From NCBI GenBank assembly GCA_963922205.1, contig CAWUHX010000077.1, forward strand, positions 992,001 through 1,056,000: a DNA stretch of 64,000 bases, in the 5' to 3' direction. The first letter of the stretch is position 1; every line of letters starts with the position of its first letter. The notes under the pieces were generated by a model. It was given only the letters and a program-made list of their open reading frames with translations. It was not told the DNA's origin and did not search any database. The position numbers and the translations under genes are program-made. Below are positions 3,806 through 35,492 of this stretch, piece after piece. The stretch is from Romanomermis culicivorax. Lineage: Eukaryota > Nematoda > Enoplea > Mermithida > Mermithidae.

Positions 3806-3809
3806 CTCG
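3806..3809. repeat. Target-site duplication of the element A array (left)
   Basis: CTCG next to LTR 1, matched by CTCG at 26126-26129 after LTR 4. No such duplication is present at the internal LTRs, so the whole triplet derives from one integration event. Confidence 0.85.
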
Positions 3810-4201: not shown

Positions 4202-4212
4202 CCTCACCCCTT
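4202..4212 (-). other. Element A unit 1 polypurine tract
   Basis: AAGGGGTGAGG on the - strand abuts the LTR start TGTAAC. There is one pyrimidine interruption. Identical tracts occur at 11510-11520 and 18818-18828. Confidence 0.7.
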
Positions 4213-4241
4213 AAGAAAAACCTACACCGAAATATACAATT

Positions 4242-11082: not shown

Positions 11083-11099
11083 ACAAAATTCGAATAATT

Positions 11100-11117
11100 A
11101 GTTTTGATGACCCCCCA
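11100..11117 (-). other. Element A unit 1 primer binding site
   Basis: TGGGGGGTCATCAAAACT begins immediately after the LTR end (GTTATA). The leading TGG complements a tRNA CCA end. The tRNA identity cannot be read here. The same site recurs at 18408-18425 and 25716-25733. Confidence 0.6.
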
Positions 11118-11509
11118 TATAACGATAACGATATATTAAGCTTTTATTGGGTAGCCGTAATACAAAGCCAATATCGTAAATGTTGAGTAGCCGTTACAAT
11201 ATAGCGTAAGGCAACTAAAGTTATGGCGAATCACACTGATAGATCGGCTCTAGCTCTCTCTCTAATCTATCATTATGACAAAGGTTTATAAGCAGTAAAA
11301 CAGCTAAGTAAATATTATTCCCGTTAGAACGATCGAGCTCCGATAGATAGCTAATTATAGCAAAATTATAGCGATAGAGTAAACACAAAACATGGAATCA
11401 AACTAGAAACGTTAGTTATGGAAAAGCGATAGATTGGACATTACAGAAAATTGTACAAGGAAGTTAAAACGAGAAATAATGAATATCAACGAATAAACCA
11501 TTCGTTACA
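11118..11509 (-). repeat. Element A LTR 2 (internal, hybrid)
   Basis: Shared by units 1 and 2. It has G at 11124 like LTR 4 and T at 11452 like LTR 1, i.e. the pattern of a recombinant between the outer LTRs. No target duplication flanks it. Confidence 0.92.
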
Positions 11510-11520
11510 CCTCACCCCTT
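11510..11520 (-). other. Element A unit 2 polypurine tract
   Basis: Same tract as in unit 1, abutting LTR 2. Confidence 0.7.
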
Positions 11521-11549
11521 AAGAAAAACCTACACCGAAATATACAATT

Positions 11550-18390: not shown

Positions 18391-18407
18391 ACAAAATTCG
18401 AATAATT

Positions 18408-18425
18408 AGTTTTGATGACCCCCCA
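18408..18425 (-). other. Element A unit 2 primer binding site
   Basis: TGG-initiated site directly inside LTR 3, as in unit 1. Confidence 0.6.
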
Positions 18426-18817
18426 TATAACGATAACGATATATTAAGCTTTTATTGGGTAGCCGTAATACAAAGCCAATATCGTAAATGTTGAGTAGCC
18501 GTTACAATATAGCGTAAGGCAACTAAAGTTATGGCGAATCACACTGATAGATCGGCTCTAGCTCTCTCTCTAATCTATCATTATGACAAAGGTTTATAAG
18601 CAGTAAAACAGCTAAGTAAATATTATTCCCGTTAGAACGATCGAGCTCCGATAGATAGCTAATTATAGCAAAATTATAGCGATAGAGTAAACACAAAACA
18701 TGGAATCAAACTAGAAACGTTAGTTATGGAAAAGCGATAGATTGGACATTACAGAAAATTGTACAAGGAAGTTAAAACGAGAAATAATGAATATCAACGA
18801 ATAAACCATTCGTTACA
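18426..18817 (-). repeat. Element A LTR 3 (internal, hybrid)
   Basis: Same hybrid state as LTR 2: G at 18432 and T at 18760. Confidence 0.92.
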
Positions 18818-18828
18818 CCTCACCCCTT
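18818..18828 (-). other. Element A unit 3 polypurine tract
   Basis: Same tract as in unit 1, abutting LTR 3. Confidence 0.7.
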
Positions 18829-18857
18829 AAGAAAAACCTACACCGAAATATACAATT

Positions 18858-21465
18858 TCACAAAGGCTTGGTCTCTGTGGTGAATAGTCGTAACCGATTG
18901 ACATGAACAACTTCGAGGCGACTATCTGGCTTTGTTATAAGTCGTATGTGGGCATTGGGTGGGTCCATCTTCATGATTCGATATGGTCCATACCAACATA
19001 CCGTATATTTGGGGCACTTCCCCTGCTTTACGGTCGGATTATGCAAATAAACTATATCTCCTTTCTTGAAGATTACAATCTTGACTGTTTTATCATATTG
19101 GGTTTTCTGCAGTCGTTGTGCTTGTTGTATGTGTTCTGATGCTATTTGCCATGCCACAGTCAGTCGATCTTGAAGCTCTTCTTTGTATGATGAAAAGCTC
19201 TCAACATAGGGGCTTCGGTACACTGCAAAGTTTTCATCTGCAGGAATCCGGGCATCACGTCCATATAGTAAGTAGAAGGGTGTTTCCTTGGTGGATTCAT
19301 GGACTGATGTTCGATAGGCGAAAAGGGCATATGGTAAGTGAGCATCCCAATTATCATGGGTTGTAGATACATACATTTTCAGCATATTTGTCAGTGTGCG
19401 ATTGAAACGCTCTACCATACCATCGCTTTGGGGGTGGTACGGTGTTGTTAGTTTCTGTTCCGTTTCGCAAAGTCGTGCTATTTCTCGAAATAACTTTGAT
19501 GTAAAATTTGTACCACAGTCAGAGAGGATTTGACGTGGACTACCAAAGCGACAAACTATATTTTCTACAAAAAGTCTCGCTGTTATCTCTGCTGTGACAT
19601 TATTCACTGCAAATACCTCGGGCCACTTAGTAAAGTAGTCCATGAAAACAACAAGATATTTGTTACCATGCTCTGTGAGAGGCAAGGGACCCATAACATC
19701 AACTGCAATCATTGAAAAGGGAGTCCCAGGGATCAATATGGATTGCATTGGAACTTTTGTCTTTTGATTCGGTTGCTTGTAGGAGAAGCATTTTATGCAC
19801 TCCTTGCACATCTTATGAATGTCATTATTCAGGTTGTGCCAATAGAATCTTTTGGAAATTTTGGCAAGCGTTTTCATAAATCCTAAATGACCACTAAACT
19901 TGTCTTCATGGTACAATTTGAATATTTTTGTTGTCAGGGACTGTGGGACTACTATACGAGGTGATCGGTTATCTTTGTTACCTCTACGATACAGTAGATT
20001 GTCCAAAATCATATAATGAGAGGCTTCAGCTGATAAGAACTGGATATCTTCAGCAGACATCGTAGGATCAATGTATGCTTTCCCGAGATAATCTATTATC
20101 CATTTGCAGAATCTATCAGTTCTTTGCCCTTGGGCAACCACGTTGTGACTTCCACTGTCATCCTCTTCATTTGAACTATCATCTTCTTCTTCGATTCCTT
20201 GTATCATATTTATTTTTTCATCATCCATTCTGATACGAGACAGGGCATCTGCATCATTGTTATTCTTTCCTGGTTTGTATTTAATGGAGATATTATATTC
20301 CAACAGCGCCATCTTCCATCTTGTCAATCTCGAGCTGGTAGATGGATTCTTGTAAATGTACTGCAGTGGTGCATGATCCGTGACAAGGATGCATTCCTGA
20401 CCATAAATGTAAGGTCGGAGGGTCTTTATTGCCCAGACAATAGCAAGTGCCTCTAGTTCAATTACAGCATAGTTCTTTTCATGCTTGCATAATGCTCGGC
20501 TGATGTACGCAATTGGCTTTTCATTATCATTGTGAATTTGAGCAAGTACTGCTCCTAGAGCATCTTTACTTGCATCAGTTTTGATGATGAAGGGTTTAGT
20601 ATAGTCAGGGTAAGCCAGTACAGGAGCTGTAATTAATGCCTGCTTGAGTTGTTGGAAAGCTTGCTCACAAGAATCTGTCCAATGGAATAGTACGGCTTTA
20701 CAGAGAAGTTTGTGAAGCGGGTGAGCAATATCTGCAAAAACTGGGAATGAATTTTCTATAGAAGGATGCTAGTCCTAGAAAGGATTTTAGCTGTGTTGTA
20801 TCCTTGGGCTGTGGAAACTCCTTGACAGCTTTAATTTTTGAATCATCAGCTTTCAAGCCCATAGCAGTGACTTTATATCCGAGGAAACTGACCTCCTCCT
20901 GCAAAAATTGACATTTTTTCAACTTCAACTTGAGATTTGTCAATCGCAGCCATTTAAAAACTTCTTCAAGCACTTCTTTATGCTTCTCGACTGTCTCTGT
21001 GCAGACCAAAATGTCATCCAGATAAACAAAACAGTTTTTCCATTCGAGGCCAGCCAAAACTTTGTTCATGGTTCTTTGGAATGTCGCTGGGGCATTGCAA
21101 AGTCCAAATGGCATAACATTGAATTCCTATAATCCTGAATAGGTTGTGAATGCCGTTTTTTCACGATCTGTTTGATCTACTTCCACCTGCCAGTAGCCTG
21201 AGGCAAGATCCAATGTGGAAAAGTATCTAGATTTCCCTACAGTGTCAAGTATATCATCAATACGAGGTAGCGGAAATACATCTTTCTTTGTGATGTCATT
21301 GAGCTTACGGTAGTTGACACAGAATCTTATAGATCCATCTTTCTTTTTGACAGGTACTACAGGACTTGACCATGGGCTGGTTGATGGTTGTATGAGTTTC
21401 CTACTCAAAAGATCCTGTACATTATCATCAATGATTTTTCTTTGGGAAAAAGGGACACGATAAGG
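18858..21465 (-). pseudogene. pol: Element A unit 3 pol: RT-RNase H-integrase, disrupted
   Basis: Conceptually identical to units 1 and 2, with TGA at 21466-21468, TAG at 21127-21129 and the frameshift run at 20736-20740. Confidence 0.9.
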
Positions 21466-24108
21466 TCATTGTTTTATTGGTGGATGATCATGGGTTTCTA
21501 TGTTATGCTTCGTTATATCAGTTCTTCCGAGGTCAGCATCAGAGAGGGCAAAAATGTCCATATTATTGATTAAAAATTGGCTCATAATATCATATTGATT
21601 AGCTGGACAGTTTCTTAGCTTTTGTTCAATGAGGTTTTCAGCTGAGCTATTGATATCTTTATCTTCAATGAATAGGATGGACTCCATTTTTACAACATTG
21701 CTCTGGCTAAACGTTTCTATATACCCTAGTGTCGTATTTTTGAACAATTTTACCGGTGCTACAGTTGGGTTTTGACAGATGACTTCAATAGGTGTATTCT
21801 GGGTTACCAGCATTTCTTTAATAATCAGATTATTTCGTTGCATCAGAGTGTCTGCAGGTGAGACAAGGTTGACTTGTTCTGGCAAATTTGGGGCCTTTTG
21901 TAGTGTAGTTAACTTGATAATACTACGAGGTGGTACAATTTTCGATTCAGATAAATGGATGGGCATTTTCTTTACTTTTGGCATTTCCCCCTGTGTTGGA
22001 CAGGATTTGAGGCCTTCAATTAAGGGAATCTGAGACCCGACATCAAAACGAACCCATTTTCTTATGATATCAATGGTCATTTTACCACCTACCTGGACAA
22101 GAAAATCGTTGCCCAAAATCATTTGTTGAGGACAGTTGTCCATTACAAAAACTTTCATCATTATTTGAAAATCGTTGATTACAGTAGGTAGCTGTACGTG
22201 ACCAGCCAATTGTACAATGTGACCCGTTAAAGAGGTTGCACCTAGTGGCAGGTCAATTAAATTGATGATGGGTTGATTTTTGGAAACATTGTTCTGATAT
22301 ATTTTTTGGAGATGGCTCTTACTCAGCAAAGATAGTGTGGCTCCAGTGTCAATCAAGGCTAATGTACCAGTACCACTAGCAGTGACAAATATCAATGGCT
22401 GTTTTATGTTAGAGTTGCCATCAGCAACGTATGAAATGGACGCTTCTCTATTTGCTGGTAGGAGTCTTGGTATTTGATTATTTCTCAATGGTTCATAACC
22501 AGAGATTGTTACTGTGTCACGTGCACCATTGAAAAGTATTTTCTGGTTTCCAACTCTGTGGTTTTTGTGCCTCAAAAATGTTGGCATTGAAAAACATCGA
22601 AAGCAATAACCAAGCTTTGATTTTACTATTAGATAGACGATGAAAACTATCCCGAATAGTGCTGCAACCGTGACTATTAGGTTAAATATCAGTTGTAATG
22701 GTCCAGCTAACAGCCTATTGGCTAATTCAGCAGTTCCCTTTGTGGCACTACCAATTAAATGTTCAAGACTTCTACTGGGTACCTGCATCATTTTACTTGC
22801 AGCATTTCCAGCACCTTCAATCATTTCTTTGAGAGCTGATGGATGTAGTGACAAAGCAGAATTGTATTCTATAAGTTGGTTCATTTGTGTTTGAAGTTTC
22901 ATCACTTTACTCATGTAATTTTTGAACATTCCCAGGCCATTAATGGTGCCTTCTAATTGGTCATAAAATATTGCTGGCGCATTGAATATAGTTACATTAG
23001 GCACTGAATGCATCAACAATTCTGCGGGGAGCATGCTTACATGGACAGGTCCCCGTTCAGTTCTCCAATCCTGTGGGGTGTTTTGAAAGATTCCACTTAT
23101 ATGATGGTTACAATTTATGGTAAGTGAAGTGGAAACTAAATCGTGACTGCCTGGGGTAGCAAACATTAATTTGTTGTTAATAAGGACAGGAAGGAGCTCA
23201 TAGCATGTTCCATTAACTTGGTAGTCCCAGAAGATTTTAGATGCTGTATACTTTTTGCATTCCCATACTAATAAAGCTTCTCCAGCAAACTTGGCGTGAA
23301 TGTCCTTTCCGTTGAGGAGTACTCGAGCTCCAAGGATTGCATCTAATTGTAATAGCTGGTGGATTATATTTATCTGTCGGTTGTTCATGTGGCAAAAGTT
23401 TGACCACACTTCACGAAAATCATTTGTTTCTAATGCCAATATTTTGGCTTCCAAGTACTGTAGCTTAGCATTGACTGGATCAACTGGTTTGGGTGGTTGT
23501 GGTCGTGAGGGACGAGAGGGATTGGAGGCTCTTTTTGTTCTGTACCTATTAATGATTTTTAGGGCTACACCTTGATGAGTTAAGATGGCATCAACAGGTA
23601 AGCAGTGGCGTCCTTTTATCTCACTCAGTGGTACATTGAGAATTGAGAATGCACCCTGAATGGCATCAATAACATAGAATGAGCTGCTATAAACTGCTGA
23701 ATATGTCCGTAGTTCAACATATTTCCAAGGAGAGACTATCTTTGATGCATCCCATACTATCACTCCGTCTTGGGTGTCACAGTACCCGCTGGGTGCATAA
23801 CATGATCCCATATTGCCAAGATCACTTGATAAGGTGTGACCATCGGTGGTGGCAATCTGTCCTTTCTCCAGAATTAAATTCTCTACAGTGAAACATTTAT
23901 CTCGACAACACCATTCAAACCGAACATCGAGCGTAAGATTGGTCGTCCAGGATTCATTGGAAGCAAGTGGGACTAGGAGATGATCCCGATAATGTTTGGT
24001 TTCAATAACGGCTTTACATTCACCCATGATAAGAGGCCTTTCTTTGATTTGATCCAACATGATTCCTTTTGCACCGAAGAATCCAACATTGGTGCAGATT
24101 GTTCTTTG
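21466..24108 (-). CDS. Element A unit 3 envelope-like glycoprotein-protease
   Basis: Identical translation to units 1 and 2 (Met at 24060). Confidence 0.82.
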   Translation of the reverse strand, partial: QRTICTNVGFFGAKGIMLDQIKERPLIMGECKAVIETKHYRDHLLVPLASNESWTTNLTLDVRFEWCCRDKCFTVENLILEKGQIATTDGHTLSSDLGNMGSCYAPSGYCDTQDGVIVWDASKIVSPWKYVELRTYSAVYSSSFYVIDAIQGAFSILNVPLSEIKGRHCLPVDAILTHQGVALKIINRYRTKRASNPSRPSRPQPPKPVDPVNAKLQYLEAKILALETNDFREVWSNFCHMNNRQINIIHQLLQLDAILGARVLLNGKDIHAKFAGEALLVWECKKYTASKIFWDYQVNGTCYELLPVLINNKLMFATPGSHDLVSTSLTINCNHHISGIFQNTPQDWRTERGPVHVSMLPAELLMHSVPNVTIFNAPAIFYDQLEGTINGLGMFKNYMSKVMKLQTQMNQLIEYNSALSLHPSALKEMIEGAGNAASKMMQVPSRSLEHLIGSATKGTAELANRLLAGPLQLIFNLIVTVAALFGIVFIVYLIVKSKLGYCFRCFSMPTFLRHKNHRVGNQKILFNGARDTVTISGYEPLRNNQIPRLLPANREASISYVADGNSNIKQPLIFVTASGTGTLALIDTGATLSLLSKSHLQKIYQNNVSKNQPIINLIDLPLGATSLTGHIVQLAGHVQLPTVINDFQIMMKVFVMDNCPQQMILGNDFLVQVGGKMTIDIIRKWVRFDVGSQIPLIEGLKSCPTQGEMPKVKKMPIHLSESKIVPPRSIIKLTTLQKAPNLPEQVNLVSPADTLMQRNNLIIKEMLVTQNTPIEVICQNPTVAPVKLFKNTTLGYIETFSQSNVVKMESILFIEDKDINSSAENLIEQKLRNCPANQYDIMSQFLINNMDIFALSDADLGRTDITKHNIETHDHPPIKQ

Positions 24109-25698
24109 TCAAAGTCTGCATTTCCATGCTTCGATTGTGGCTGGTTTGTGGTTTGGCTGGTAGAGCTTCAGTTGGACCTTCTTTGGCACTTCCTTTGAAG
24201 GCATTTTGCAATCCATTGTCTTTGGTATTGCGATTGGATGGCCGCTGCGGCCATGACCACATTGGTAGAAATCATGCTCTACTCCAACAGTCAATGGGCA
24301 TATTATTGCCATAATAATAATTCCTACGATCATTCCCACTTGAAGGGAGAGGGATTTGGTGGGAGTATACTTTTCATACCATCGTATACTTGAACGATTT
24401 TTGTTATCACTAGTTGACACTTTGTTCCTAGCCTTGGACTGCAACTTATTCTTAGAAGTTGACTTTTTTTTATTCGTTCTGCTACTCTTGTGAATATCTA
24501 CTGGAAAATCGTCCACATTCTGGTCAGTGGGATACTGTAGCACAATGTCTGATCCACATTTGTAAGTAGGTAGCTGTGCAGAACACTGAGATGCCATATC
24601 TTTCTCAGGGAAGGCAGGTTGTGCAGTTACACTGAATGATGGATTTTGTGAGAAATTTTGCGACATCTGTTCAAGTTGTCGCCTTAAGCTTTCAACTTCC
24701 TGTTCTAGGAGATGTTCCCTACTGGGTGGTGTGCGCTCAGGTTGGACTAAAGGCTGTGCAACATGGACACTATGGTTCCCAGGCTTAATTCTAGGAAGCG
24801 AGGATTTGGGCATTCTATATGCTGATTGACCCATGGAAACTGCCATGTGTGTGCCATTTTGAATGTCTCTTTGCCTTTTGCGACATACCGAAATAAAATG
24901 ACCTGCTTTTTTGCAATAATGACAGGTTTGTTTCTCCGTCTTCTCATGTCGATTCCCTGCTGGACTATGATAATTATTGGGTCGACTGTTTTGGGTTTTT
25001 ATGGTATTTACCCGGTGGCAACCTGACCATTCCTTATTTTCTCTATCTCTCAACTGTGATTCAATTAGTAGTTGGGTTTCTAGCTGCCTAGCCAAAATTT
25101 CTGCTTCAGAAAACGTTGTGGGGCTACGTTTCATCACATCAGGGCGTAAGTCCTGGTTTAATCCATTAATGAAGAATCTTTTACAGAGCGTATCTATAGC
25201 ATCAGGTGGCAAACCTGGATATGATTCAAGAACTAATTTTTGTATGGCAATACTGAAATCTGTAACACTTTCAGACGATTTTTGACGGCGAGCATGAAGC
25301 TCTATGGATCGAATGTCACTAATATGTGGTGGCCGAAATCTTTGTCGGAAAAGCTCTGTAAGAGCTAGAAAATCAAGTTGGGTGCGTTGGGTGTCACTAA
25401 GACTATTATAAACTATTTCTGCTGCGTCCCGCAACAAGGTTGGGAAAACTAGTCGTTTATATGTTTCATCCCATTTTTGTGCTTGTGCAACTAAGTTAAA
25501 CCGATTCAACCAAGACTCGAAATTTTCAGTGGGCCGACCATGAAAGAAATCTGGCTCAAACCGAATAAGATTGGGTCGCGGGGTCTGGAGTGCATTGAGC
25601 TGCTGATTCTGGATACCTAGCTCCTGACGAACCTGTTCCCGCAACAAATCTAAATTAGTACGTACCTCGTCCAATGTCATTGCTCGTGTAATTGGCAT
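24109..25698 (-). CDS. gag: Element A unit 3 Gag plus envelope N-terminus
   Basis: Identical translation to units 1 and 2. This unit is next to the outermost 5' LTR, so it is the one whose gag lies first behind the array promoter. Confidence 0.88.
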   Translation of the reverse strand: MPITRAMTLDEVRTNLDLLREQVRQELGIQNQQLNALQTPRPNLIRFEPDFFHGRPTENFESWLNRFNLVAQAQKWDETYKRLVFPTLLRDAAEIVYNSLSDTQRTQLDFLALTELFRQRFRPPHISDIRSIELHARRQKSSESVTDFSIAIQKLVLESYPGLPPDAIDTLCKRFFINGLNQDLRPDVMKRSPTTFSEAEILARQLETQLLIESQLRDRENKEWSGCHRVNTIKTQNSRPNNYHSPAGNRHEKTEKQTCHYCKKAGHFISVCRKRQRDIQNGTHMAVSMGQSAYRMPKSSLPRIKPGNHSVHVAQPLVQPERTPPSREHLLEQEVESLRRQLEQMSQNFSQNPSFSVTAQPAFPEKDMASQCSAQLPTYKCGSDIVLQYPTDQNVDDFPVDIHKSSRTNKKKSTSKNKLQSKARNKVSTSDNKNRSSIRWYEKYTPTKSLSLQVGMIVGIIIMAIICPLTVGVEHDFYQCGHGRSGHPIAIPKTMDCKMPSKEVPKKVQLKLYQPNHKPATIEAWKCRL

Positions 25699-25715
25699 AC
25701 AAAATTCGAATAATT

Positions 25716-25733
25716 AGTTTTGATGACCCCCCA
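25716..25733 (-). other. Element A unit 3 primer binding site
   Basis: TGG-initiated site directly inside LTR 4, as in the other units. Confidence 0.6.
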
Positions 25734-26125
25734 TATAACGATAACGATATATTAAGCTTTTATTGGGTAGCCGTAATACAAAGCCAATATCGTAAATGTT
25801 GAGTAGCCGTTACAATATAGCGTAAGGCAACTAAAGTTATGGCGAATCACACTGATAGATCGGCTCTAGCTCTCTCTCTAATCTATCATTATGACAAAGG
25901 TTTATAAGCAGTAAAACAGCTAAGTAAATATTATTCCCGTTAGAACGATCGAGCTCCGATAGATAGCTAATTATAGCAAAATTATAGCGATAGAGTAAAC
26001 ACAAAACATGGAATCAAACTAGAAACGTTAGTTATGGAAAAGCGATAGATTGGACATTACAGAAAATCGTACAAGGAAGTTAAAACGAGAAATAATGAAT
26101 ATCAACGAATAAACCATTCGTTACA
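25734..26125 (-). repeat. Element A LTR 4 (5' LTR of the array)
   Basis: 392 bp. G at 25740 (as in internal LTRs) and C at 26068, where the other three LTRs have T. Confidence 0.92.
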
Positions 26126-26129
26126 CTCG
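26126..26129. repeat. Target-site duplication of the element A array (right)
   Basis: CTCG, pair of 3806-3809. Confidence 0.85.
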
Positions 26130-27978
26130 CATTTTCTCGACGTCAAAATCGGTGAATTGTATGAAAAATAGTAGTAGGGATTTCCCCTATACTTCTTTTT
26201 CGTTACGAGATCGGTTTCGTTGGAGACAGGGAAGCTGTCGTTTTTAAATACGATTTGGCGCATAAAATATTGATTCGCGTATATCCGTTGTTTATTGTCG
26301 CTGCGACTCTTTTCCTTATAGGGCAAGCGACTAGCCCATTCCATTAGTTCGAATTCGAACGTTCTGTCTCGTTTCACCCAATTTTGTTCGCAAATGAGAT
26401 CTATGTCGATACTGTCACTTTTCGATAACAGTTTCGAGATCTCATTTTTGATGATGGCTCGCAATTCCATTTTGGAATGTGGGGAGCAGACGTGAGCGAC
26501 TAGCGGCATAGTTCCGCGAACAGCATTCATCCATTGATGATGATTCGGAAGCGCGTAGAGCGGCGTTAGAGCCGGCTTTTCGGCGATCTGATGATCGCAT
26601 TTTATTTCGTAGATCGGCCACGTTTCGGGAGTACCGTAGGTCGTGAACGGATCGTTTACGACTAAGTTGAAGTTTATTTGTTTCGCTTCGTCGCTCGTCA
26701 CCATGTTTTGATCTATTTCGGAAAGAAATAGTAACGACATAGGAGCGCCGACTTCGTGATGAATACTAACTACGTCATTGGAGCGTAAAGCTTGCTCTAT
26801 AACTCTCGCGCATACAGCGGCGTCGTCGTATGGTTCAATTTTTCTGTCGTCGGTCAAAGAAGACGTGTTGTTTCTGCTACCCTTTATCATCGGTAGTTTT
26901 GTAGGGTGCATTTTCAATCTGAGTGGTTTAGTGAAGTGCTCCACGTTTACGTGATTATACATGCAGAATCGCATGTTCGGGACGTTGTAGTCGTAGTATA
27001 TGATTCGATTTAACGCTAAGATTTCGTCGCGCATGATCGCATGCAACATACTTTTCGAGAGCGTCGGATCTACGACGCCGAAAGCGCCCTTTTCGTCGCC
27101 TTCGCGGTCGACGTTTGCGTTGTCATACAAATTTTGCGTAGCAATGTGTATGTATTCGGGCGGCAAGAAATCATGTGGGAAGATTTGTATATTGTCGTAG
27201 ACGCTGTCTACGAAGCCGTAGCGCCCGTACGCTAAAAACATTAGTATCGGATAATACGCGTCTAGAATCGAATACGTCAACACTTGTTCGTTGGGTTTGC
27301 CTGCTTGGGCGATGCGATCGTTCGCTTGCGGAAAGTACAATGTGTAGCGTTCTACGTCTAGCGCGAACGCGTCGGCCACGATTCCTTTCAATTTTTTGTT
27401 CTCGGGGTACAAGCGGATCAGACGAGCTCTTTCCCACTTTTCGGGTGAGCGTTCGATATTTTCTAGTATTATCTGGACGTCGACCAGAATACTAGGCGCG
27501 AGCATGTTAGAGTGCGTTTTTCGAGCGTTGGAAGAGTAATACTCGCGTCCGTGCATGTCTTTGAGACATTTCCAATCATCAGCTTGATCGAATCCGATTA
27601 CGATTGTTTTAGGGGCTGACACGAACTCGTAGAAGGCCGTCCAATCCTCGGGTGTCGCCGCTAAGGCGTCGAACATTATAGTGTATCCAGTGGGAAAACC
27701 CAGCTGGACGAACCGAGCGACGTGGGTCGCGTTCTGGTTCACTATATTCATCTTCGTTTTCTTGTGTATGTATAGTTGATTAGTCGAGATTTTTTCGACG
27801 TCGAATCCGACTAGCACGTGGCCGCGGAAGTTTGGTTTTGCGTATGCCGATAGGGCGCCTTTCAACTCTCCGCTCTCAACGTATTGGGGATCGCGTAGGA
27901 CATTGAGCAGTCTTGCATATACCGTCTCGAACCACCGTTCGAATTCCGTGATCAGAATCATTCTTTTGATATTGTATT
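26126..27978 (-). pseudogene. Element B accessory gene, exon 2: DEDDy 3'-5' exonuclease domain, interrupted by the element A array
   Basis: Counting from Met at 27961: Exo I motif GFDVEK (Asp54, Glu56), Exo [15 protein letters not shown] (Asp128 in the D-x-W-K context of RNase D/WRN/MUT-7-type enzymes), a further Asp near 161 (ILVDVQIIL), [16 protein letters not shown], and Exo [11 protein letters not shown] (Tyr230-x3-Asp234). All four acidic residues and the Tyr of the DEDDy class are present, so the domain may once have been active as a 3'-5' exonuclease on RNA or DNA. About 360 unrecognised residues follow. The frame runs into the LTR at 26125 and resumes in phase at 3805. It follows integrase, in the place where errantiviruses carry env. 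I found no signal peptide or membrane segment. Confidence 0.8.
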
Positions 27979-28191
27979 CTATAAAATATCATAAAATTTC
28001 GATTATTTTTTGTGAGATTTAGTTTCGCATGGAAACGTCACTCTTTCGAATCGCGGCGTGCAAATCTTCTAGCGATGTTACCACGACTCACATTTTTTAT
28101 CGACGGATCGATACTTTACTCTTCCCAGGGGAAGTGAAACCCAGAGTTTCTTTTTTAGAGACTTTAGTCTATTTGGCAGTGCAGAACTTAC
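27979..28191 (-). other. Predicted intron of the element B accessory gene
   Basis: 213 bp. Donor G|GTAAGT at 28191, acceptor ATTTTATAG ending at 27979. It is phase 1 and joins the upstream small frame to the exonuclease frame without a stop. The same phase-1 arrangement is seen in element C2 at 45004-45444. Confidence 0.65.
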
Positions 28192-28354
28192 CATCCGCAA
28201 AGAAAAATCTGTCGTCTTGATGGTATTGCTTTTTCTGATACGCCACGTATCGGTCTTGATCATTAAAATATTTTTTAAATATAGGCGGCGGATTTATTAG
28301 CGATGTGGATATCGCCGATCCTTGCGACGTTGTCGCCTCCGATTCGCTCCCCAT
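28192..28354 (-). CDS. Element B accessory gene, predicted exon 1
   Basis: 54 codons plus one base from the ATG at 28354 (start MGSESEATTSQGSA), including PPPIFKKYFNDQDRYVAYQK. The frame would close soon after the donor, which supports splicing at 28191/28192. A similar small exon lies ahead of the exonuclease in element C2. Its function is unknown. Having its own start and intron suggests expression from a subgenomic, spliced mRNA. Confidence 0.6.
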
Positions 28355-28840
28355 CGGTTTTCTCTATCAACTTTGTTTTTGAACAATTTCAAATTGATGC
28401 GACCGTTCTCTATCGTTTCAATTCTCCGAAATGAAAATATAAGCCAAACTATCTTGCTAAAAGATGAAGGTGTAAAGTGGAAAGTTGTTAAACCACGAAT
28501 TTAAATTTTCATGCACATGGCGAAAAATGTAATGTTCAGATTGGGTGGGACCAGAGGAAGATTTTCCTACGGCACGCGCTATCTACTCATTTTCTTTTCT
28601 GCGCAACTACTTATGGAAGGTCAATTTATTTGAAATGGACGTGAATAATACAAAATTACACGATAATATCACACACATTCCTTTCACTCATTCCACAATG
28701 AATCTGTATGAGCGCGTTTAGCGCGTTTTAAATATTCGAAAATTTATACTCATCGCTTTGCTCACGATCATTAAATAGTTAGAATTTATTTAACAAAATT
28801 AAAAATTAATGTTAGTTGAAATATATCAAAATTAACAGTT
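28355..28840 (-). other. Spacer between integrase and accessory gene of element B
   Basis: AT-rich, no coding frame. It contains a GC palindrome GAGCGCGTTTAGCGCG near 28710. Possible promoter or splice-control region for the accessory gene; nothing specific is proven. Confidence 0.45.
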
Positions 28841-30382
28841 TTAATTTTTATGAAGTTTTGGAGGACCGTTGTCTTCCGTTTCTAAGATTGCCGATGCCGT
28901 ACGTGGCATGTATGGCTTTACACGAGAAAGTGAGACTTTCTGAGATTGTCCGGGACAATCTAGACTATCAATTCTTATGACGTTTTTCGAAATTTCGGAG
29001 TTTTCGACCACTACGAAGGGTCCGATGTAGTCTTTGTCGATTTTAGTTGCTTTTTTGTTGTTAAGCAACAGTATGAGATCGTTTAGATCGTATTTCTGGG
29101 CTTTCGCCTTTTTATCGAAGTATCGTTTATGTGATTCGGACGTGGTTTTTAAGTTTTCGGAAACTTCGTTATATAGCGTTAGTTGGGCTTGCGTGAAGAT
29201 ATACTGGTACGCATCGTAGTTTAGCGGTAACGTTAGACTTTTAGCGCAGTTGAAATCAATAGCGATTCTGGGTTCATACCCTCCCAAAAGTCGAAACGGA
29301 GAGAAGTGAGTAGCTGTGTGAGGAACAGCGTTATAGGCGAATGTCGCGAAAGGTAAATACCGTTCCCAATTATCGGGGTCTTCAGCGGTGAATTTTTTGA
29401 GTTGCGAAATTAGGGTTTGATTGAATCTTTCTACCATTCCGTTACATTGCGGGTGATACGCAGTGGTATTGATTTTCTGAACTTTTAGGAGTTTCGCGAT
29501 GTCTTTCATCAAGTTTGAAGTGAATCCTGAACCCTGATCTGATAGTAGATGTTTCGGGCTGCCATGAACCAAAACTACATTGTTTGCGAAACTTTCAACT
29601 ATAGTTGCTGCTTTTTGATCCCGAATCAAATGAGCGCTTACCCATTTTGTGAAGTAGTCTTGAAATACGATGACGTATGATCTTTTCTCACCCAAAGGAG
29701 ATATGTTTACTATGTCGGTCACGACGATTTCAAATGGATATTTCGGTTGAATCGTCATCAACGGAGGTGGTTTCGGCAACTGAGAAGTTGTTTGTTGACA
29801 TGTTTTACATGTTTTAATCCACTTTATTATCGATTCTTCCATTTTCGGCCACCAGAAATGTTGACGAATCATCGCTGTAGTGCGTCTATGACCTTGATGA
29901 CTTAAAATCTTTGCGCCATGAAATTGATACAAAACACTTTCTATCAAAGTAGTCGGAACTACTATCGTGGAAGCTGTATTAGCTTGTTTCGATGTTCGGT
30001 ACACTATTTCGTTTTCGGTATGAAAAGCAGAGGAAATCATAGAGATTTGGTTTTGTTCTAGAACTTTTATCAACTTCGCGATGTACGGATCTTTTCTTTG
30101 AGCTTCTATGATTTCTTCTGGTGATTCTATGGTTACTAGCCGTTTCTCAGGCTGTTGGAAGTCTTCTTCGAATCTCGGCACTTTATTTCTTTCTTCTTTT
30201 TGCGTCATTGACCTTGTTATGGCCGCTGCGACAGTCTTTTTTCCTTCGCGAAACGTTGGTCTGAATATTTCATTCGTTACTTCTTCGCTAGTCTTTGACT
30301 TCACTTTAGCGCGAGGCTCATTTCGTGATAGAAAATCAGCACAAGCATTTTCTTTGCCTTTCACATATTCAACTCGATAGTC
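28841..30382 (-). CDS. Element B integrase region
   Basis: Integrase inserts the cDNA into the genome. About 510 residues after the TAG at 30383-30385; start of the frame includes VEYVKGKEN from the RNase H/IN linker (ADFLSR). Zinc-binding domain with paired His ([11 protein letters not shown]) and CKTCQ. Catalytic triad: Asp in VVTDIV, Asp in [11 protein letters not shown], Glu in [10 protein letters not shown]-terminal IGPFVVVE is the GPY/F motif. No lesion inside this stretch. Closest relative in the window is the decayed integrase of C1 (40331-41533). Confidence 0.88.
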
Positions 30383-30796
30383 CTAGTCTTGAAGTTTTAT
30401 TGCGAAGTTCTGAAGTCGTGAATTTCGATGTTTTTCTTCTTCGATCCATTGCAAAGGTTTATGGTCAGTTCTGACCGTTACTTTTTGACCATAGACACAG
30501 TGTCTGTACCAACGAAAAGCTTCTACAATTGCTAGACATTCGTGCTCAGTCGTACTGTAGCGGGTTTCTACATCAGACAGAACTCTACTGTTGTAAGCGA
30601 TGACCCATTGATCAGTTTCATTTTCTTGATACAAAATCGCGCCGATAGCAGTTGTGCTAGCATCAGTTTGTATGATGAATTTCGATTTTTCGTCATTATA
30701 GACAGGATATCGCAAAAAAGGAGTTGAGGTTAGAGATATTTTAATCTCGTTAAAAGCTATACGATGTTCTTCGCTTATTTCATATTTTGCATTTTT
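30383..30796 (-). pseudogene. Element B RNase H domain
   Basis: Degrades RNA in RNA-DNA hybrids. Motifs: IIQTDASTTAIGAIL, TEHECLAIVEAF, RTDHKPLQW, in one frame with RT and integrase. Bounded by TGA at 30797-30799 upstream and TAG at 30383-30385 downstream; both are single in-frame stops with no frame change. Confidence 0.85.
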
Positions 30797-31840
30797 TCAT
30801 AATAGTTGATAGAGCGGTCGCGAAAGAGTGGCAAGATTTGGTATGAATCGTCTACACCATTGGACAAGGCCCAAAAAACTTTGAAGATCTTTTACCGTTT
30901 TTGGCATTTCATAGTGTACGATCGCAGAGACCTTTTCGGGATCAGGCGAGATTCCATTTTCGCTTAGCAAGTGACCAAGAAACTTTACTTGTTTCGGCAC
31001 GAAATCGCATTTATCTGGTCTTAGCGTTAGATTCCCGTCACGGAGAGCATCAAAGATCAGTTGAATATGTGCCAGATGATCGTTATATGTTTGCCAAAAG
31101 ACTATGATATCGTCGATATAGACCAAACAGATTTTCCAGATATATGGATGCAGGATCCGTTCCATTAGTCTTTGAAATTCAGCGGGAGCATTTTTCAAAC
31201 CAAAAGGTAGAACTTTGAAACGAAATAAGCCTTCTTGACTGACGAAAGTAGTTTTATCGCGTGAAGCGATGTTTAAAGGGATTTGCCAATACCCTGCTTT
31301 CAAATCTAGAGTTGAGAAAAATCGTGCATTGCCTAAAGCATCTAGATAGTCATCGATTCTCGGGATCGGAAACTTATCACTAGGAGTAACTTCATTTATA
31401 CCTCTATAATCGACTATGGGTCGCCAACTTCCATCTTTTTTGGTTACCAGAAACATAGGTGCAGCCCACGGTGATCACGAAGGTTCAATGAGGCCTTTTT
31501 CTAGCATTTCTTGGATTTTCTGATGAACCATTGGTCTTTGTTCAATCGGCGCACGATAGTAGTGTTTCGCGACTGGTTTTGCAACACCGGTGTCTATAGA
31601 GACCGTTAACTCGTGAGTGAGAGTAGGCTGATCTCCAGGGAGACTGAAAACATCGCAATATTGCTTGAAGACTTCGATAGCGATTTTTCTATCTTCATCG
31701 TCGATATTCGATTTTTCGGTCATTTTTTCGAGAGCGAGTTGAAGTTTTTCTTCTTCCGACATAGTTGACTGGTCTTTAACCAATGTTGCTGGTTCATAGT
31801 CTTCTTCATGATCCCTTAGGGACGCGACGGTCATTTTCGA
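30797..31840 (-). pseudogene. Element B reverse transcriptase
   Basis: Frame includes the pre-RT linker (CDVFSLPGDQPTLTH), VTKKDGSWRPIVDYR, STLDLKAGYWQIP, FKVLPFGLKNAPAEFQR and the active site LVYIDDIIVF. In-frame stops: TAA at 31841-31843 between protease and RT, TGA at 31475-31477 inside EPS-x-SPWAAP, TGA at 30797-30799 after LYQLL. Apart from these the RT is full length with all catalytic motifs. Confidence 0.88.
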
Positions 31841-33502
31841 TTATTCGAGTTTGAATTTAACTTCAGCGATGAGCTGGTTAGGTTGCAGATGGATACCGTT
31901 TGCACTATTATTGACAAATAATAGTGGACATTTGCCTTCAGTTATGTTGATTATCGTAAGTTCGATCGGATATTCGCAGTTTTCATTTCCGAAGTTCACG
32001 GGTTGAACTATAACGCTTTTGAAGCTTTCGTTTGTGAAAGGAAAGATTTTTCCGTTAACCCACGTTTGACAATTCGGTTCTACGTAGCATGATGAGATAT
32101 TCAAAATCGGTAGCAATCTGTCGATTTTTACGATTTGCGTTTGACTTTGTCCCGTAGAAGTATTTGAAAATACTTTGTCGTAGGGCGTTTTTTCGATCGG
32201 TTTCAAAACTAGGTTTAGTTCTTGCTGAACGTCTCCGATTCTGATGAAATTTTCACTAAAGTTTATTACGGCTCGAACACTCGGATGCACTAGGAAATCG
32301 GTTCCTAGGAGGCATTGCTCTCCTGTTGTAGGTAGAATCCAGCATCGTACTAGATGCGTTCCGAAAGATGAACTGATTTTGAAGATTATCGGACCTCTGG
32401 CATCGATGATAGCACCGTCGGCTACTTTTATCTGCGCGGATGTTTCCAAAGTATCATAGTCAATCCCCAAAGAGCGTTGAGCTAGACATGAGGAAATGAC
32501 TGAACACTGAGCACCGGTATCGATTAACGCTTTCGTTGTGATTTTTCCGATTTCGGCATCGATATGAAAAGCACGAGTAGGAGCGTATAAGCTCAGAAGT
32601 TTGATATCTTTTTGCGAACATTCTTCAATTCGACACACGCTAGATCTTGCGATCCACGGTTCAGTAGGTTTTTCGATTGTGAAATCAGTGATTCCCGGAG
32701 CGACGAAGAAGTTTGTAGCTTTAGAAGCTTCTGTCGGTTCAAGCATATTAGCTGTACTGGTCGTCGGTTTCATCGGAACAAAAGTTGTAGGTGAGTTGGA
32801 CACCGTTTTGGTTTCTGATGACAAAACTTGTTGCGAAGATTTCGGAGAAGTTAGCTGAGTCTGTATAGACTGTGAGTTATTCATCGGATAGTAGTAGTGC
32901 TTCTCGATTATCTTTTCTTGTCGGGATTCGGAATCGCAAAGAGAAATGTTTGCAACATCTCTCTGATAGTTTCGATTATCGCGATTGAAAAATCGGTCAT
33001 TTCGGTCAAAATTTTGATTCTGATTGAGGGTGTAGTTACGCGTATTTTGTTGAAAACGAGGACGCCAATTATGGTTATTTTGCCATTGATGATTCGGTTG
33101 CTGTTGCCGAGGCTGAGAAGCCTGTGGTTTTAATTGATAGCATTCGGAGCTGTCGTGTTTACACTGACCATGATAGGTGCAATATTTTACTGGTCGTTCA
33201 CGTGACTGATTTCGTTGGAAGTTTCGATTCTGAGAGAAATCCCGTATAGGAATGTTTTCTCTGTTCCGAAAATTCGGACTCGTTCCGCGATCGAATCGCG
33301 ATCTTCGATTTTCGAAATTATTAGCATTTTGCGAATTTTCTCGGATTCCGAACTTTTCTAGGACTCGTTTTATGCTTTCTTCCAATTCTTTCGTCTTTGT
33401 TAGAGTCGAATTTTCTTGAAACCTCACACTATTTCGCTGTCTAGAGTCATCTCTGTTTGGGGATTGTTTTGGGATTATCTCTGAATCGAGGTTTCGAATC
33501 AT
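31841..33502 (-). CDS. Element B nucleocapsid-protease
   Basis: 553 residues. The N-terminal half is Asn/Arg/Gln-rich and includes a Cys/His cluster CTYHGQCKHDSSEC near 108-121, a divergent zinc knuckle. The protease has KALIDTGAQCSVIS near 324-337 and CLLGTDFL near 394. The frame is shifted +1 relative to gag and overlaps it by at least 56 nt (33447-33502). This may be programmed frameshifting, as known for Ty3, or an indel. It ends at a TAA in the same frame as RT. Confidence 0.85.
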   Translation of the reverse strand: MIRNLDSEIIPKQSPNRDDSRQRNSVRFQENSTLTKTKELEESIKRVLEKFGIRENSQNANNFENRRSRFDRGTSPNFRNRENIPIRDFSQNRNFQRNQSRERPVKYCTYHGQCKHDSSECYQLKPQASQPRQQQPNHQWQNNHNWRPRFQQNTRNYTLNQNQNFDRNDRFFNRDNRNYQRDVANISLCDSESRQEKIIEKHYYYPMNNSQSIQTQLTSPKSSQQVLSSETKTVSNSPTTFVPMKPTTSTANMLEPTEASKATNFFVAPGITDFTIEKPTEPWIARSSVCRIEECSQKDIKLLSLYAPTRAFHIDAEIGKITTKALIDTGAQCSVISSCLAQRSLGIDYDTLETSAQIKVADGAIIDARGPIIFKISSSFGTHLVRCWILPTTGEQCLLGTDFLVHPSVRAVINFSENFIRIGDVQQELNLVLKPIEKTPYDKVFSNTSTGQSQTQIVKIDRLLPILNISSCYVEPNCQTWVNGKIFPFTNESFKSVIVQPVNFGNENCEYPIELTIINITEGKCPLLFVNNSANGIHLQPNQLIAEVKFKLE

Positions 33503-34823
33503 CTCTGAAGCGCGACTGAGCTGGTTGCTCTTCCGACGAATTTTCGAGTGTATTAACCAGTATAGGTTGTTCTACTCTAACAGTTGACTGTTTATTCGCT
33601 CGCTGAATTTTCTGAACTTTCGCGACGGCTATAGCTAAGTCAGTGATCGTTTCTAGAGTACTCGCGTCAATTGAGACTCTGTAAATTTCCGGCATTTTCC
33701 AAAGAAAAGTTGTGATAACTTTTCTATGGCGATACTGAGCGCTTCTGTCATAGTACAGTAGATGTACGTAAGTACTGATTCGATTTAAGAAAGCTGACGG
33801 ATCTTCGGTTTCAAACGGAGCAATAGACTGGAGCTCGCATTGGAGCGTATCTTGGTCGCAATTCGGTGCATTCATACACATCAAAATCTGTTTCGCTTCA
33901 TCATAGGATCGGACATCTCTTATGGTGTTCAGGGCACCATCACAAGTCAAGTGACGCAAAGTGTGAAGTTTCACATACTCAGACGCATCAAGGCGGAACT
34001 CGTTTTCGAGCGCAATGAAGAATTTCAAAACTTGTTGATTTCGGGTCGAATTATCTAATTTTTGCGGCGCTATCTTTTTACAGATAGTCTTAATCCTCGT
34101 TTCATCATCGGCCAAAGATCTATGCACCTGAGAAGGTGGGATAGACGGAAAATTTATCTGAGAGTTTAGCGCGTTTAGCGCGTTAGAGCGGTCAAACGTT
34201 TGTGTCCGGATGATTAGATCATCATCATCGTCGATTATACTGCCAAAACTTAGTTGACTTTTTCGATCGCTAGTGGCGTTTTTCGGTTTTGTTGATTTCT
34301 GAGACTGAGCGTAAGAGCTCCTAGGTCTTGCGATATTTTCAATTTCAGGAACATTCGGTTTCGTTAGCTCTTCTTTCTGAGCTCTCATCGCTTCGATTTC
34401 GGTTTTAAACTCATCGAGAAGTTTTCATTGTTGAGTCGCTATTGTAACCATTTCGCTTAACGCGTTAGTAGCGTCGCCACGAAAATTTATCATTTCTGCA
34501 TCACATTTTTGCATTACGTCGATGTACGCATCATTATCGAAGATTTTTCGAGGATCGGTATCCTTCGGTTTCGGTTTTAAAAAGTTGAATTTTCGGTTTT
34601 TGACGATTTTCGGAGATAGAGATCGTGAAGTTTTTCGCGTTTTTAGCGGAGCGGACGTTTCTGGTAGATCGAAATTACGCTTATCTGCTTCGTAGAGAAG
34701 CGGTAGATTCGCGTTTTCGCAGTCGAAATTTTCGATTTCTAGATTAGCGGGATTCGCTAGTTTCTTGTAGAAACCTTTTTCGTAACCGAGCGCTGTAGAG
34801 CGACGCGTGCGGTTTTCTTCCAT
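33447..34823 (-). pseudogene. gag: Element B gag
   Basis: Starts at the ATG at 34823 (MEENRTRRST), 76 bases inside the LTR. An in-frame TGA at 34425-34427 splits it into 132 and 313+ residues. The second part contains the capsid-like region (LKFFIALENEFRLDASEYVK ... AFLNRISTYVHLLYYDRSAQ). The C-terminal RFRD repeats run out where the protease frame takes over. It assembles the particle in active relatives; this copy would need readthrough of the TGA. Confidence 0.8.
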
Positions 34824-34874
34824 TTTTCGGATTTTCGATTTTTCGCAAATTTTGGCGTTTCCTCAACCTTTAGA

Positions 34875-34893
34875 CGAGCTGGTACGGTCACCA
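34875..34893 (-). other. Element B primer binding site candidate
   Basis: TGGTGACCGTACCAGCTCG starts five bases inside the 5' LTR end. TGG fits a tRNA CCA terminus; the tRNA is not identified. Confidence 0.5.
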
Positions 34894-34898
34894 AATTA

Positions 34899-35488
34899 TG
34901 TCTTGCGTGAGAAAATAGAAGTGAATAGATGACGATGCAGACGAGAATTTAGCTGTGTAGCTTGACGATTTATCGCGCCTTTAGAAGAGACGTACGGAAC
35001 GTAGAAGAGCGTGCGGAACGCTATAGACGAAACACTCGGAGTGTTCAACGGAATCAACGCAACGATAGTCGAACGCAGGAGATTGACGGGCTCGTAGAGA
35101 GCGCTGTGTCAATTTATCCAGGGATCTTCGCTCAGGTCGTCAAAGGTTTTCGGATGCCGAAACTCGGGCCGTGCTATCTTAACCACTTAGGAGTTTCACT
35201 CGCTTACTCAAAGTATTTTCCAAATAGTTTGACTCAATCTAGAACACACTTTTCGCACGATTTACTAATGTACAAAACAGCCGCCTCACACCTTTTCAGA
35301 CAAACACAAAAAAAACACAACCGTTTGGCTACAGTACAACGCAATCTAATGAAAAACACTTTCATAATTTCTTCACGTTGTAGCCACGCCTCTTCGGTGG
35401 TCTCTTCACGATCTTTCTTATTCAAACTTGCCGATCTTTTTTCGCAAACGACACGAGCTTTACAACTACGCCAAATCGCTCCACAACA
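34899..35488 (-). repeat. Element B 5' LTR
   Basis: 590 bp, pair of 909-1498. It lies upstream of gag in the coding direction and should hold the promoter. Confidence 0.93.
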
Positions 35489-35492
35489 AAAG
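35489..35492. repeat. Target-site duplication of element B (right)
   Basis: AAAG, pair of 905-908. Confidence 0.85.

What the first reader, a model, noticed from the sequence alone, without database searches (positions are those of the whole stretch)
26126..28354. Ty3/gypsy-type retrotransposon carrying a DEDDy 3'-5' exonuclease gene downstream of integrase
Sequence: [19 protein letters not shown] and YSILDAYY lie in order in one frame, inside one LTR-bounded element with its own target duplication. Known: these are the Exo I-III signatures of the RNase D/WRN/MUT-7 superfamily. Inference: the element captured and kept a cellular exonuclease; possible roles are trimming of reverse-transcription ends or interference with small-RNA silencing, in which nematode MUT-7 takes part. 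I know of no described LTR element with this gene in this place.
Basis: partly seen in the sequence, partly recalled or inferred. Interest (0 to 1): 0.92.

Follow-up and report, generated by a model that had tools for sequence, protein, structure and literature searches.

The report
Exonuclease gene in nematode LTR retrotransposons
A family of jumping genes in what is very probably the mosquito-parasitic worm Romanomermis culicivorax carries, after its integrase gene, an extra gene for an RNA- or DNA-trimming enzyme that natural selection has kept intact; the same kind of extra gene was already known from jumping genes of rotifers, so this extends a known oddity to another animal phylum.

Summary
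On the minus strand of a contig that is very probably Romanomermis culicivorax, a Ty3/gypsy-type element (LTRs 909-1498 and 34899-35488, 98.5% identical, TSD AAAG) carries, after integrase, an ORF3 with the DEDDy motifs in order. A nested array (3810-26125) cuts this copy's ORF3 at 26126.

Pfam finds nothing in the window protein, and two AlphaFold2 runs failed. The identification rests on a bridge. Two more retroelement families of the genome (F2, F3) have an ORF after integrase that passes the PF01612 cut-off. The window family (F1) is clearly homologous to F3 (hhalign E 7.6e-8; 0 of 500 shuffles reach its score).

ORF3 belongs to the element: 10 of 10 fetched F1 copies have integrase upstream and an LTR downstream. 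The five motif residues are intact in 18 of 19 copies; dN/dS over the exonuclease is 0.069, against 0.074 for integrase.

The novelty claim fails: DEDDy-exonuclease ORF3s after integrase were published for bdelloid rotifer elements in 2017 (PMC5408684). New here: the nematode host, several lineages, a predicted intron, strong purifying selection, and a host reported to lack PIWI.

Most likely a trans-acting 3'-5' exoribonuclease; its target is unresolved.

The parts
909..35488 (-). Outer Ty3/gypsy-type LTR retrotransposon (family F1), 5' to 3' on the minus strand, interrupted by a nested array at 3810-26125; TSD AAAG at 905-908 and 35489-35492
   Evidence: LTR pair and flanks; Pfam domains
34899..35488 (-). 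5' LTR
   Evidence: 590-column match, 98.475% identity to 909-1498
34881..34893 (-). likely tRNA primer-binding site (TGGTGACCGTACC), 5 nt after the 5' LTR
   Evidence: read from sequence printed; PBS assignment by recalled convention, no tRNA matched
33450..34862 (-). gag region, two stop-free pieces (34862-34428, 34424-33450)
   Evidence: no Pfam match, assigned by position
32291..32563 (-). aspartic protease domain within ORF 31841-33502
   Evidence: PF13975 E 1.7e-11
30971..31444 (-). reverse transcriptase domain; the pol frame of this copy has in-frame stops at 31843-31841, 31477-31475, 30799-30797 and 30385-30383 (not compared with other copies)
   Evidence: PF00078 E 1.8e-36; frame pieces
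30389..30691 (-). RNase H domain
   Evidence: PF17917 E 3.5e-34
28841..30364 (-). integrase ORF (H2C2 zinc-binding and rve core)
   Evidence: PF17921 E 7e-19, PF00665 E 4.3e-12
28192..28354 (-). ORF3 exon 1 (54 codons plus 1 nt), predicted
   Evidence: conserved in 11 of 11 copies; same junction in R. culicivorax gene model P0004
27979..28191 (-). predicted ORF3 intron, G^GTAAGT ... AG^A
   Evidence: no RNA evidence
26127..27978 (-). ORF3 exon 2, N-terminal part up to the nested insertion
27251..27808 (-). DEDDy exonuclease core: Exo I D 27802-27800 and E 27796-27794, Exo II D 27577-27575, Exo III Y 27274-27272 and D 27262-27260
   Evidence: homology F1-F3; F3-PF01612
1847..3809 (-). ORF3, C-terminal part beyond the insertion, ending at stop 1849-1847; in-frame stop in this copy at 2887-2885
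   Evidence: matched by 10 of 10 fetched copies
2837..3061 (-). Arg/Ser-rich stretch of ORF3 (75 aa, 27% Arg and 15% Ser in copy L021)
   Evidence: end coordinate set by the length in L021
1499..1511 (-). likely polypurine tract AAAGGGGGAGGAG
   Evidence: sequence printed; assignment by convention
909..1498 (-). 3' LTR
3810..26125 (-). nested head-to-tail array of another LTR element (4 LTRs, 3 internal regions, period 7308), TSD CTCG at 3806-3809 and 26126-26129, which interrupts ORF3

Best explanation
SHOWN: ORF3 is a third gene of a repeated Ty3/gypsy-type LTR retrotransposon (at least 72 matches in the genome, very probably Romanomermis culicivorax). It sits between integrase and the 3' LTR, encodes a diverged DEDDy 3'-5' exonuclease domain with intact catalytic residues, and among intact copies is under purifying selection as strong as that on integrase. 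INFERRED: it is made from its own spliced mRNA, separate from Gag-Pol. It works in trans as an accessory 3'-5' exoribonuclease, probably in the nucleus (the F1 tail is Arg/Ser-rich; the F2 tail has an SV40-like basic stretch, motif recalled). It removes or trims RNA from the 3' end to the element's benefit. My leading single target is RNA of the RdRP/Dicer siRNA silencing pathway (about 35%), with 3'-end maturation of the element's own RNA or cDNA about as likely (about 30%). The confidence below is for 'selected, catalytically competent accessory DEDDy exonuclease of the element', not for the target.
For: Place: integrase upstream and LTR downstream in 10 of 10 fetched F1 copies. Homology: F1 versus F3 hhalign probability 94.5, E 7.6e-8 over 278 columns with the motifs in register; pairwise score 124 against a shuffled mean of 33, 0 of 500 shuffles reach it. 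F3 passes the PF01612 cut-off (L043: 31.8 bits against 23.6, E 1.5e-7, residues 7-206 matching profile 20-166 of 173; L049: 30.3 bits). F2 passes it too (E 1.7e-13 to 2e-10 in 3 of 3 scanned). A search of the whole genome with PF01612 listed 80 places, all over the cut-off; of the 24 I read, 16 were F2, 8 F3, 0 anything else, and 15 of 24 show integrase within the 0.9-1.6 kb held upstream. Selection: dN/dS 0.069 (exonuclease), 0.101 (middle), 0.118 (C-terminus), 36 pairs of 9 copies; integrase 0.074, 45 pairs of 10 copies; in the four full-length F2 ORFs compared, exonuclease 0.040 versus 0.160 for the rest (6 pairs). Residues: DEDYD in 18 of 19. Splice sites 11 of 11. No transmembrane-like segment in exon 2 of F1 or in F2: best 19-residue hydropathy 1.31 and 1.66, against 3.01 for the glycoprotein of the nested element. 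Host: R. culicivorax is reported to lack PRG-1/PIWI and triphosphorylated small RNAs; its clade has an RRF-3-type RdRP; [quoted passage not shown]
Against: The window protein, the one full-length copy scanned (L021) and five R. culicivorax relatives that include the motifs or part of them (P0001, P0004, P0005, P0011, P0012) have no PF01612 match, although the database names P0011 and P0012 '3'-5' exonuclease domain-containing'. The F1, F1+F3 and F3 profiles match no PDB exonuclease. Both AlphaFold2 models are unusable (mean pLDDT 28.5 and 37.9), and fold searches with the second gave 0 matches at E <= 0.001 in either library. F1 and F2 are not detectably related pairwise (19 of 500 shuffles reach the score) and only weakly by profile (hhalign probability 5.1%). 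The copies used for dN/dS were chosen because their frames are intact. No expression, splicing, localisation or activity data were available. Several R. culicivorax gene models have lost motif residues (P0001 DRNYD, P0002 DENA-, P0004 DGNYD), which I read as decayed copies but did not test.
Confidence: 0.8

Rival explanations
1. Counter-silencing: the exonuclease degrades or trims small RNAs, or the RNA templates and products of the RdRP/Dicer pathway, and so protects the element from siRNA and RNA-directed DNA methylation.
For: The gene sits apart from pol in the position typical of accessory genes and has its own predicted intron; R. culicivorax is reported to lack PIWI, and in its clade (Trichinella) transposons are reported as targets of Dicer-made siRNAs, with CpG methylation enriched at LTR elements (PMC4323106); F1 is repeated (72 matches scored out of 3519 first-look candidates, the rest unscored); the F1 tail is Arg/Ser-rich.
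Against: No small-RNA data on these copies; a high copy number has many causes; the rotifer authors found no unambiguous correlation of ORF3 with copy number (PMC5408684).
Confidence: 0.35
2. Replication aid: the enzyme trims 3' ends of the element's RNA or reverse-transcription intermediates (tails, mismatched primer ends) before integration.
For: The DEDDy family acts on RNA and single-stranded DNA 3' ends (stated in PMC5408684); the exonuclease is as constrained as integrase; an F2 copy with 99.84% identical LTRs has no RT or protease match in its long frame (Pfam to E 1) yet keeps the exonuclease frame.
Against: It is not part of the gag-pol frame, so nothing shows packaging into particles; nearly all LTR elements do without it (general knowledge).
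Confidence: 0.3
3. RNA-binding pseudoenzyme in the manner of Maelstrom or EXD1: a DEDD fold kept for binding, not cleavage.
For: F1 is so diverged that PF01612 does not detect it; such derivatives exist in piRNA biology (PMC5408684; PMC2628886, search listing only).
Against: All five catalytic residues kept in 18 of 19 copies.
Confidence: 0.12
4. Envelope-like ORF3 or a neutral passenger with no catalytic role.
For: ORF3 occupies the env position; unrelated ORF3s occur there in rotifers.
Against: No transmembrane-like segment in F1 exon 2 or in F2; dN/dS 0.069; F2 exonuclease more constrained than the rest of its ORF (0.040 versus 0.160).
Confidence: 0.05
5. Chance resemblance: ORF3 is an unrelated protein whose motifs mimic Exo I-III.
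For: No direct Pfam or PDB match for F1; failed structure predictions.
Against: F1-F3 homology over 278 columns with motifs in register, and F3 passes the PF01612 cut-off.
Confidence: 0.04

Closest known systems
Juno and Vesta LTR retrotransposons of bdelloid rotifers with DEDDy-exonuclease ORF3 (Rodriguez, Kenefick, Arkhipova 2017, PMC5408684; abstract and passages seen)
   Same: LTR element; separate ORF3 downstream of pol/integrase; RNase D-like DEDDy exonuclease; present in more than one pol lineage of one genome.
   Different: Host is a nematode; no dUTPase detected in the PR-RT stretch scanned, whereas Juno and Vesta carry one; F1 ORF3 is about 1324 aa with a predicted intron and an Arg/Ser-rich tail; the window family is too diverged for PF01612. 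Strong purifying selection is measured here; [quoted passage not shown] Kinship with the rotifer ORF3s could not be tested: no rotifer sequence was at hand.
Athena/Terminon (Penelope-like) retroelements of rotifers with DEDDy ORFs (PMC5408684, PMC6431247; passages)
   Same: A retroelement that carries a DEDDy exonuclease ORF.
   Different: Different retroelement class, telomeric, no LTR or integrase.
Cellular DEDDy exonucleases: MUT-7, WRN, Rrp6, RNase D
   Same: Exo I, II and III residues; F2 ORF3 matches the solved Exonuclease mut-7 homolog domain and WRN best (profile E 1.9e-4 and 5.4e-4).
   Different: Element-borne; F1 and F3 find no solved relative by sequence.
Env-carrying Ty3/gypsy elements (errantivirus type; recalled)
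   Same: Third ORF in the same place; env mRNA is spliced (recalled).
   Different: ORF3 here has no transmembrane-like segment in exon 2 and no glycoprotein match, and its predicted intron lies within the ORF.

Membership tests
DEDDy 3'-5' exonuclease (PF01612-type) | Exo I D-x-E, Exo II D, Exo III Y-x3-D in order in one domain | tested here: met
   Window residues D63, E65, D138, Y239, D243 of the frame from 27988; DEDYD in 18 of 19 other F1 copies, DENYD in 1
DEDDy 3'-5' exonuclease (PF01612-type) | profile match to PF01612 by the protein itself | tested here: not met
   no match for the window protein or its exonuclease piece, nor for copy L021
DEDDy 3'-5' exonuclease (PF01612-type) | homology to proteins that match PF01612 | tested here: met
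   F1-F3 hhalign E 7.6e-8, 0 of 500 shuffles; F3 31.8 bits against cut-off 23.6
DEDDy 3'-5' exonuclease (PF01612-type) | RNase H-like (DnaQ) fold | tested here: inconclusive
   AlphaFold2 mean pLDDT 28.5 and 37.9; no fold match at E <= 0.001
DEDDy 3'-5' exonuclease (PF01612-type) | metal-dependent 3'-5' exonuclease activity | not testable with these tools
   needs purified protein
LTR retrotransposon, Ty3/gypsy type | LTR pair, short TSD, domain order PR-RT-RH-IN | tested here: met
   no tree of RT was built, so the clade within Ty3/gypsy is not assigned
DEDDy-ORF3 LTR retrotransposons (Juno/Vesta kind) | separate ORF3 between integrase and 3' LTR encoding a DEDDy exonuclease | tested here: met
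   10 of 10 fetched copies have integrase, ORF3 and LTR in order
DEDDy-ORF3 LTR retrotransposons (Juno/Vesta kind) | dUTPase domain between PR and RT (present in Juno and Vesta) | tested here: not met
   no dUTPase in ORF 31841-33502 (E up to 0.1) or in 31478-31840 (E up to 1). So it is not a Juno or Vesta element; it is the same kind of composite
DEDDy-ORF3 LTR retrotransposons (Juno/Vesta kind) | ORF3 closest to other retroelement DEDDy ORFs rather than to cellular ones | not tested
   75 of 75 hits (E up to 10) of the profile search are R. culicivorax; rotifer sequences not held

The most novel reading that the evidence does not exclude
In a nematode lineage without PIWI, several Ty3/gypsy lineages have acquired or exchanged DEDDy exonuclease ORFs and use them as encoded suppressors of the RdRP/Dicer siRNA-DNA-methylation pathway: a retrotransposon-borne nuclease weapon against the host's remaining small-RNA defence, maintained by selection as strong as that on integrase, and kept even by a recently moved element in whose long frame no RT is detectable.
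Probability: 0.2. Interest if true: 0.85.

Novelty: new member of a known kind. Interest (0 to 1): 0.5.

Why it matters
In the papers I found, DEDDy exonuclease ORF3s were known only from rotifer retroelements, and it was unclear whether they help the element. A second animal phylum with three retroelement families carrying such an ORF, and a clear signature of purifying selection on the nuclease domain, argues that these genes do something for the element. R. culicivorax is reported to lack PIWI, so the silencing-suppressor idea becomes testable in a simpler small-RNA background.

Tried and rejected
Rejected: (1) 'No described LTR element has this gene': refuted by PMC5408684. My searches for print precedents were 20 of 41 papers listed; 15 of 20; 10 of 10; 5 of 5; 6 of 6; 10 of 25. 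The listings held the rotifer paper and reviews that cite it, and no title or abstract start reporting this gene in a nematode LTR element; the library holds open-licence PMC papers only. (2) A host gene lying between two elements: ruled out by 10 of 10 copies with the same neighbours. (3) Common origin of the C-terminal parts of F1 and F2: an apparent shared motif was not significant (25 of 500 shuffles reach the score), so I do not claim it. (4) Env-like function: no transmembrane-like segment.

Led nowhere: AlphaFold2 on the 611-aa piece and on the 256-aa domain; Foldseek on the second model; PDB profile searches with F1, F1+F3 and F3 (best hits spectrin E 0.67, none, and ribosomal protein L1 E 1.1); NCBIfam (nothing for F1 or F3, only matches far below the cut-off for F2); LTRs of the F3 copy on C130 (none seen in the fetched flanks, only tandem repeats). 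My first motif count by regular expression was badly written and missed motifs that are present; one search replaces it. A first Arg/Ser count used wrong residue limits; one search replaces it. A first F2 comparison outside the exonuclease (0.250) included frameshifted ends of L031 and L033; one search replaces it.
Full report
WHAT THE SEQUENCE IS. The window lies at 992001-1056000 of contig C77 in an assembly of 359,112,060 bases and 595 contigs. This equals the published R. culicivorax v2 assembly (359.1 Mb, 595 scaffolds; PMC10879605, passages seen). The first protein search returned 9 of 9 hits from R. culicivorax. Identity of the organism is therefore inferred, with high confidence.

ANATOMY. 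On the minus strand lies one LTR element from 35488 to 909: LTRs 34899-35488 and 909-1498 (98.475% identity, 590-column alignment) and AAAG on both flanks. [quoted passage not shown] The pol frame of this copy has four in-frame stops (I did not compare them with other copies). At 26126 the element is interrupted by a head-to-tail array of a different LTR element, 3810-26125, flanked by CTCG. The finding's ORF lies directly upstream of this insertion and continues beyond it at 3809-1847, with a further stop at 2887-2885. This copy's ORF3 is disrupted, and the copy is probably dead.

ORF3 IN OTHER COPIES. A search of the own genome with the 611-aa piece scored 72 matches (of 3519 first-look candidates, the rest unscored; the window's own is among the 72), 91-100% identical, many with an uninterrupted 1273-aa frame. 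I fetched 7.6 kb around 10 such copies, chosen for long open frames: 10 of 10 have integrase, ORF3 and LTR in the same order. Upstream of the long frame is a 54-codon exon that ends ..GAT G^GTAAGT and joins ..AG^A(G/A)TAC. The sites are conserved in 11 of 11 copies, the window included, and the same junction appears in gene model P0004 of R. culicivorax. A splice is predicted, not shown.

IS IT A DEDDy EXONUCLEASE? The direct test fails: Pfam finds nothing in the window protein, in the one full-length copy scanned (L021) or in the window's C-terminal pieces. Two database relatives, P0011 and P0012, are named '3'-5' exonuclease domain-containing' by their source, but Pfam here does not find PF01612 in them either. 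AlphaFold2 failed twice, and the fold searches gave 0 matches at E <= 0.001.

The identification comes from the genome itself. Searching it with PF01612 listed 80 places, all over the curated cut-off. I read 24 of them: 16 belong to one repeated family (F2, 608-614 aa ORF in the longest copies), 8 to another (F3), none to anything else. In 15 of 24 an integrase is found in the 0.9-1.6 kb held upstream (12 of 16 F2, 3 of 8 F3; two of the 15 are the loci that supplied integrase queries). One F2 copy, on C69, is bounded by LTRs 99.84% identical over 620 bp with TSD GGTG; its 1155-aa frame matches a zinc knuckle, RNase H and, just under the cut-off, integrase H2C2, but no protease, RT or rve core at E up to 1. 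LTRs of F3 were not found.

In protein scans F2 passes PF01612 in 3 of 3. F3 passes in 2 of 4 pieces; the other two, partial, reach 21.0 and 14.4 bits against 23.6. F1 and F3 are homologous: pairwise score 124 against a shuffled mean of 33 (0 of 500); hhalign probability 94.5, E 7.6e-8. The alignment puts GFDVEK on AIDAEQ, GFDQADD on GFQMKQD and YSILD on YATLD. F1 and F2 are not detectably similar pairwise; their profiles align weakly (E 0.0077, probability 5.1%).

SELECTION. Over 9 intact F1 copies (36 pairs) dN/dS is 0.069 in the exonuclease, 0.101 in the middle and 0.118 in the C-terminal part. Integrase of 10 copies (45 pairs) gives 0.074. In F2 the exonuclease gives 0.055 over 7 copies (21 pairs, dS 0.08-2.5, so saturated for some). 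In the four full-length F2 ORFs it gives 0.040, against 0.160 for the rest of the ORF (6 pairs). The F1 copies were picked for open frames, which lowers dN/dS somewhat, but integrase was measured on nearly the same copies. The five catalytic residues are DEDYD in 18 of 19 F1 copies, DENYD in one; some database gene models have lost one or more of them.

LINEAGES. Among the integrases compared, F1 is nearest F3 (46% identity) and farther from F2 copy L055 (32%); F2 L055 is nearer that of the nested array element (40%). RT of the F3 copy on C130 is 57% identical to F1 RT. So F1 and F3 look like sisters whose ORF3 was probably inherited together, while F2 is another pol lineage with its own DEDDy ORF. 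No tree was built. Whether F2 acquired its ORF separately or by exchange is open.

MECHANISM. The gene is outside the gag-pol frame, probably expressed from a spliced mRNA, has no transmembrane-like segment in exon 2, keeps its catalytic residues and is strongly selected. This fits an accessory enzyme acting in trans. An Arg/Ser-rich stretch (27% Arg, 15% Ser over 75 residues) in F1 and a basic SV40-like stretch in F2 (by eye; motif recalled) suggest, but do not show, a nuclear or RNA-bound location. R. culicivorax is reported to lack PRG-1/PIWI and triphosphorylated small RNAs; clade I nematodes are listed as having an RRF-3-type RdRP; Trichinella siRNAs target transposons and its CpG methylation is enriched at LTR elements; and the methylation machinery is present in R. 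culicivorax (PMC4323106, passages). I therefore rank interference with RdRP/Dicer RNAs first (about 0.35) and 3'-end maturation of the element's own nucleic acids second (about 0.3). Neither was tested here.

WHAT IS KNOWN. The same composite, an LTR element with a DEDDy ORF3 after integrase, is described in bdelloid rotifers, in two lineages (Juno, Vesta) and also in Penelope-like Athena elements (PMC5408684). Later papers cite it or mention the rotifer DEDDy ORFs (PMC5718144; PMC6431247; PMC6338049; passages only). The nematode element of the window differs in lacking a detectable dUTPase between PR and RT, in the size and predicted intron of ORF3, and in measured purifying selection. Kinship with the rotifer genes could not be tested. 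I found no report of such an ORF in nematode LTR elements (listings; open-licence papers only).

VERDICT. A real, selected, but not unprecedented feature: a new, nematode member of a known kind.

Noticed in passing
window 21466-25698 (and its two further copies in the array 3810-26125), minus strand: The nested LTR element appears to carry an envelope-like glycoprotein (PF24664 Monjiviricetes_fusion, E 2.4e-11; strong transmembrane segment) BETWEEN gag and protease, in one 864-aa ORF with the protease, instead of after integrase. A similar-looking fragment lies on the minus strand of L042 (by eye).
   Followed up: partly
window 3810-26125: Head-to-tail array of four LTRs and three internal regions, period 7308, 99.97-99.99% identical in the long matches, with a single TSD CTCG: either a genuine tandem multimer of an LTR element or an assembly artefact.
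   Followed up: partly
L041, L038, L042 (G000:C69, about 273025-280547): F2 copy with nearly identical LTRs (99.84%) and an open 1155-aa frame with zinc knuckle and RNase H matches and a sub-cut-off integrase H2C2 match but no protease, RT or rve match, followed by the intact exonuclease ORF: possibly a recently mobile non-autonomous element that keeps the nuclease.
   Followed up: partly
protein P0010 (R. culicivorax): A database gene model that joins a TREX-like DEDDh exonuclease (by eye) to part of an F2 element ORF; likely a gene-prediction fusion.
   Followed up: no
window 52330-56734: Cluster of imperfect direct and inverted repeats (about 71-86% identity), not examined.
   Followed up: no
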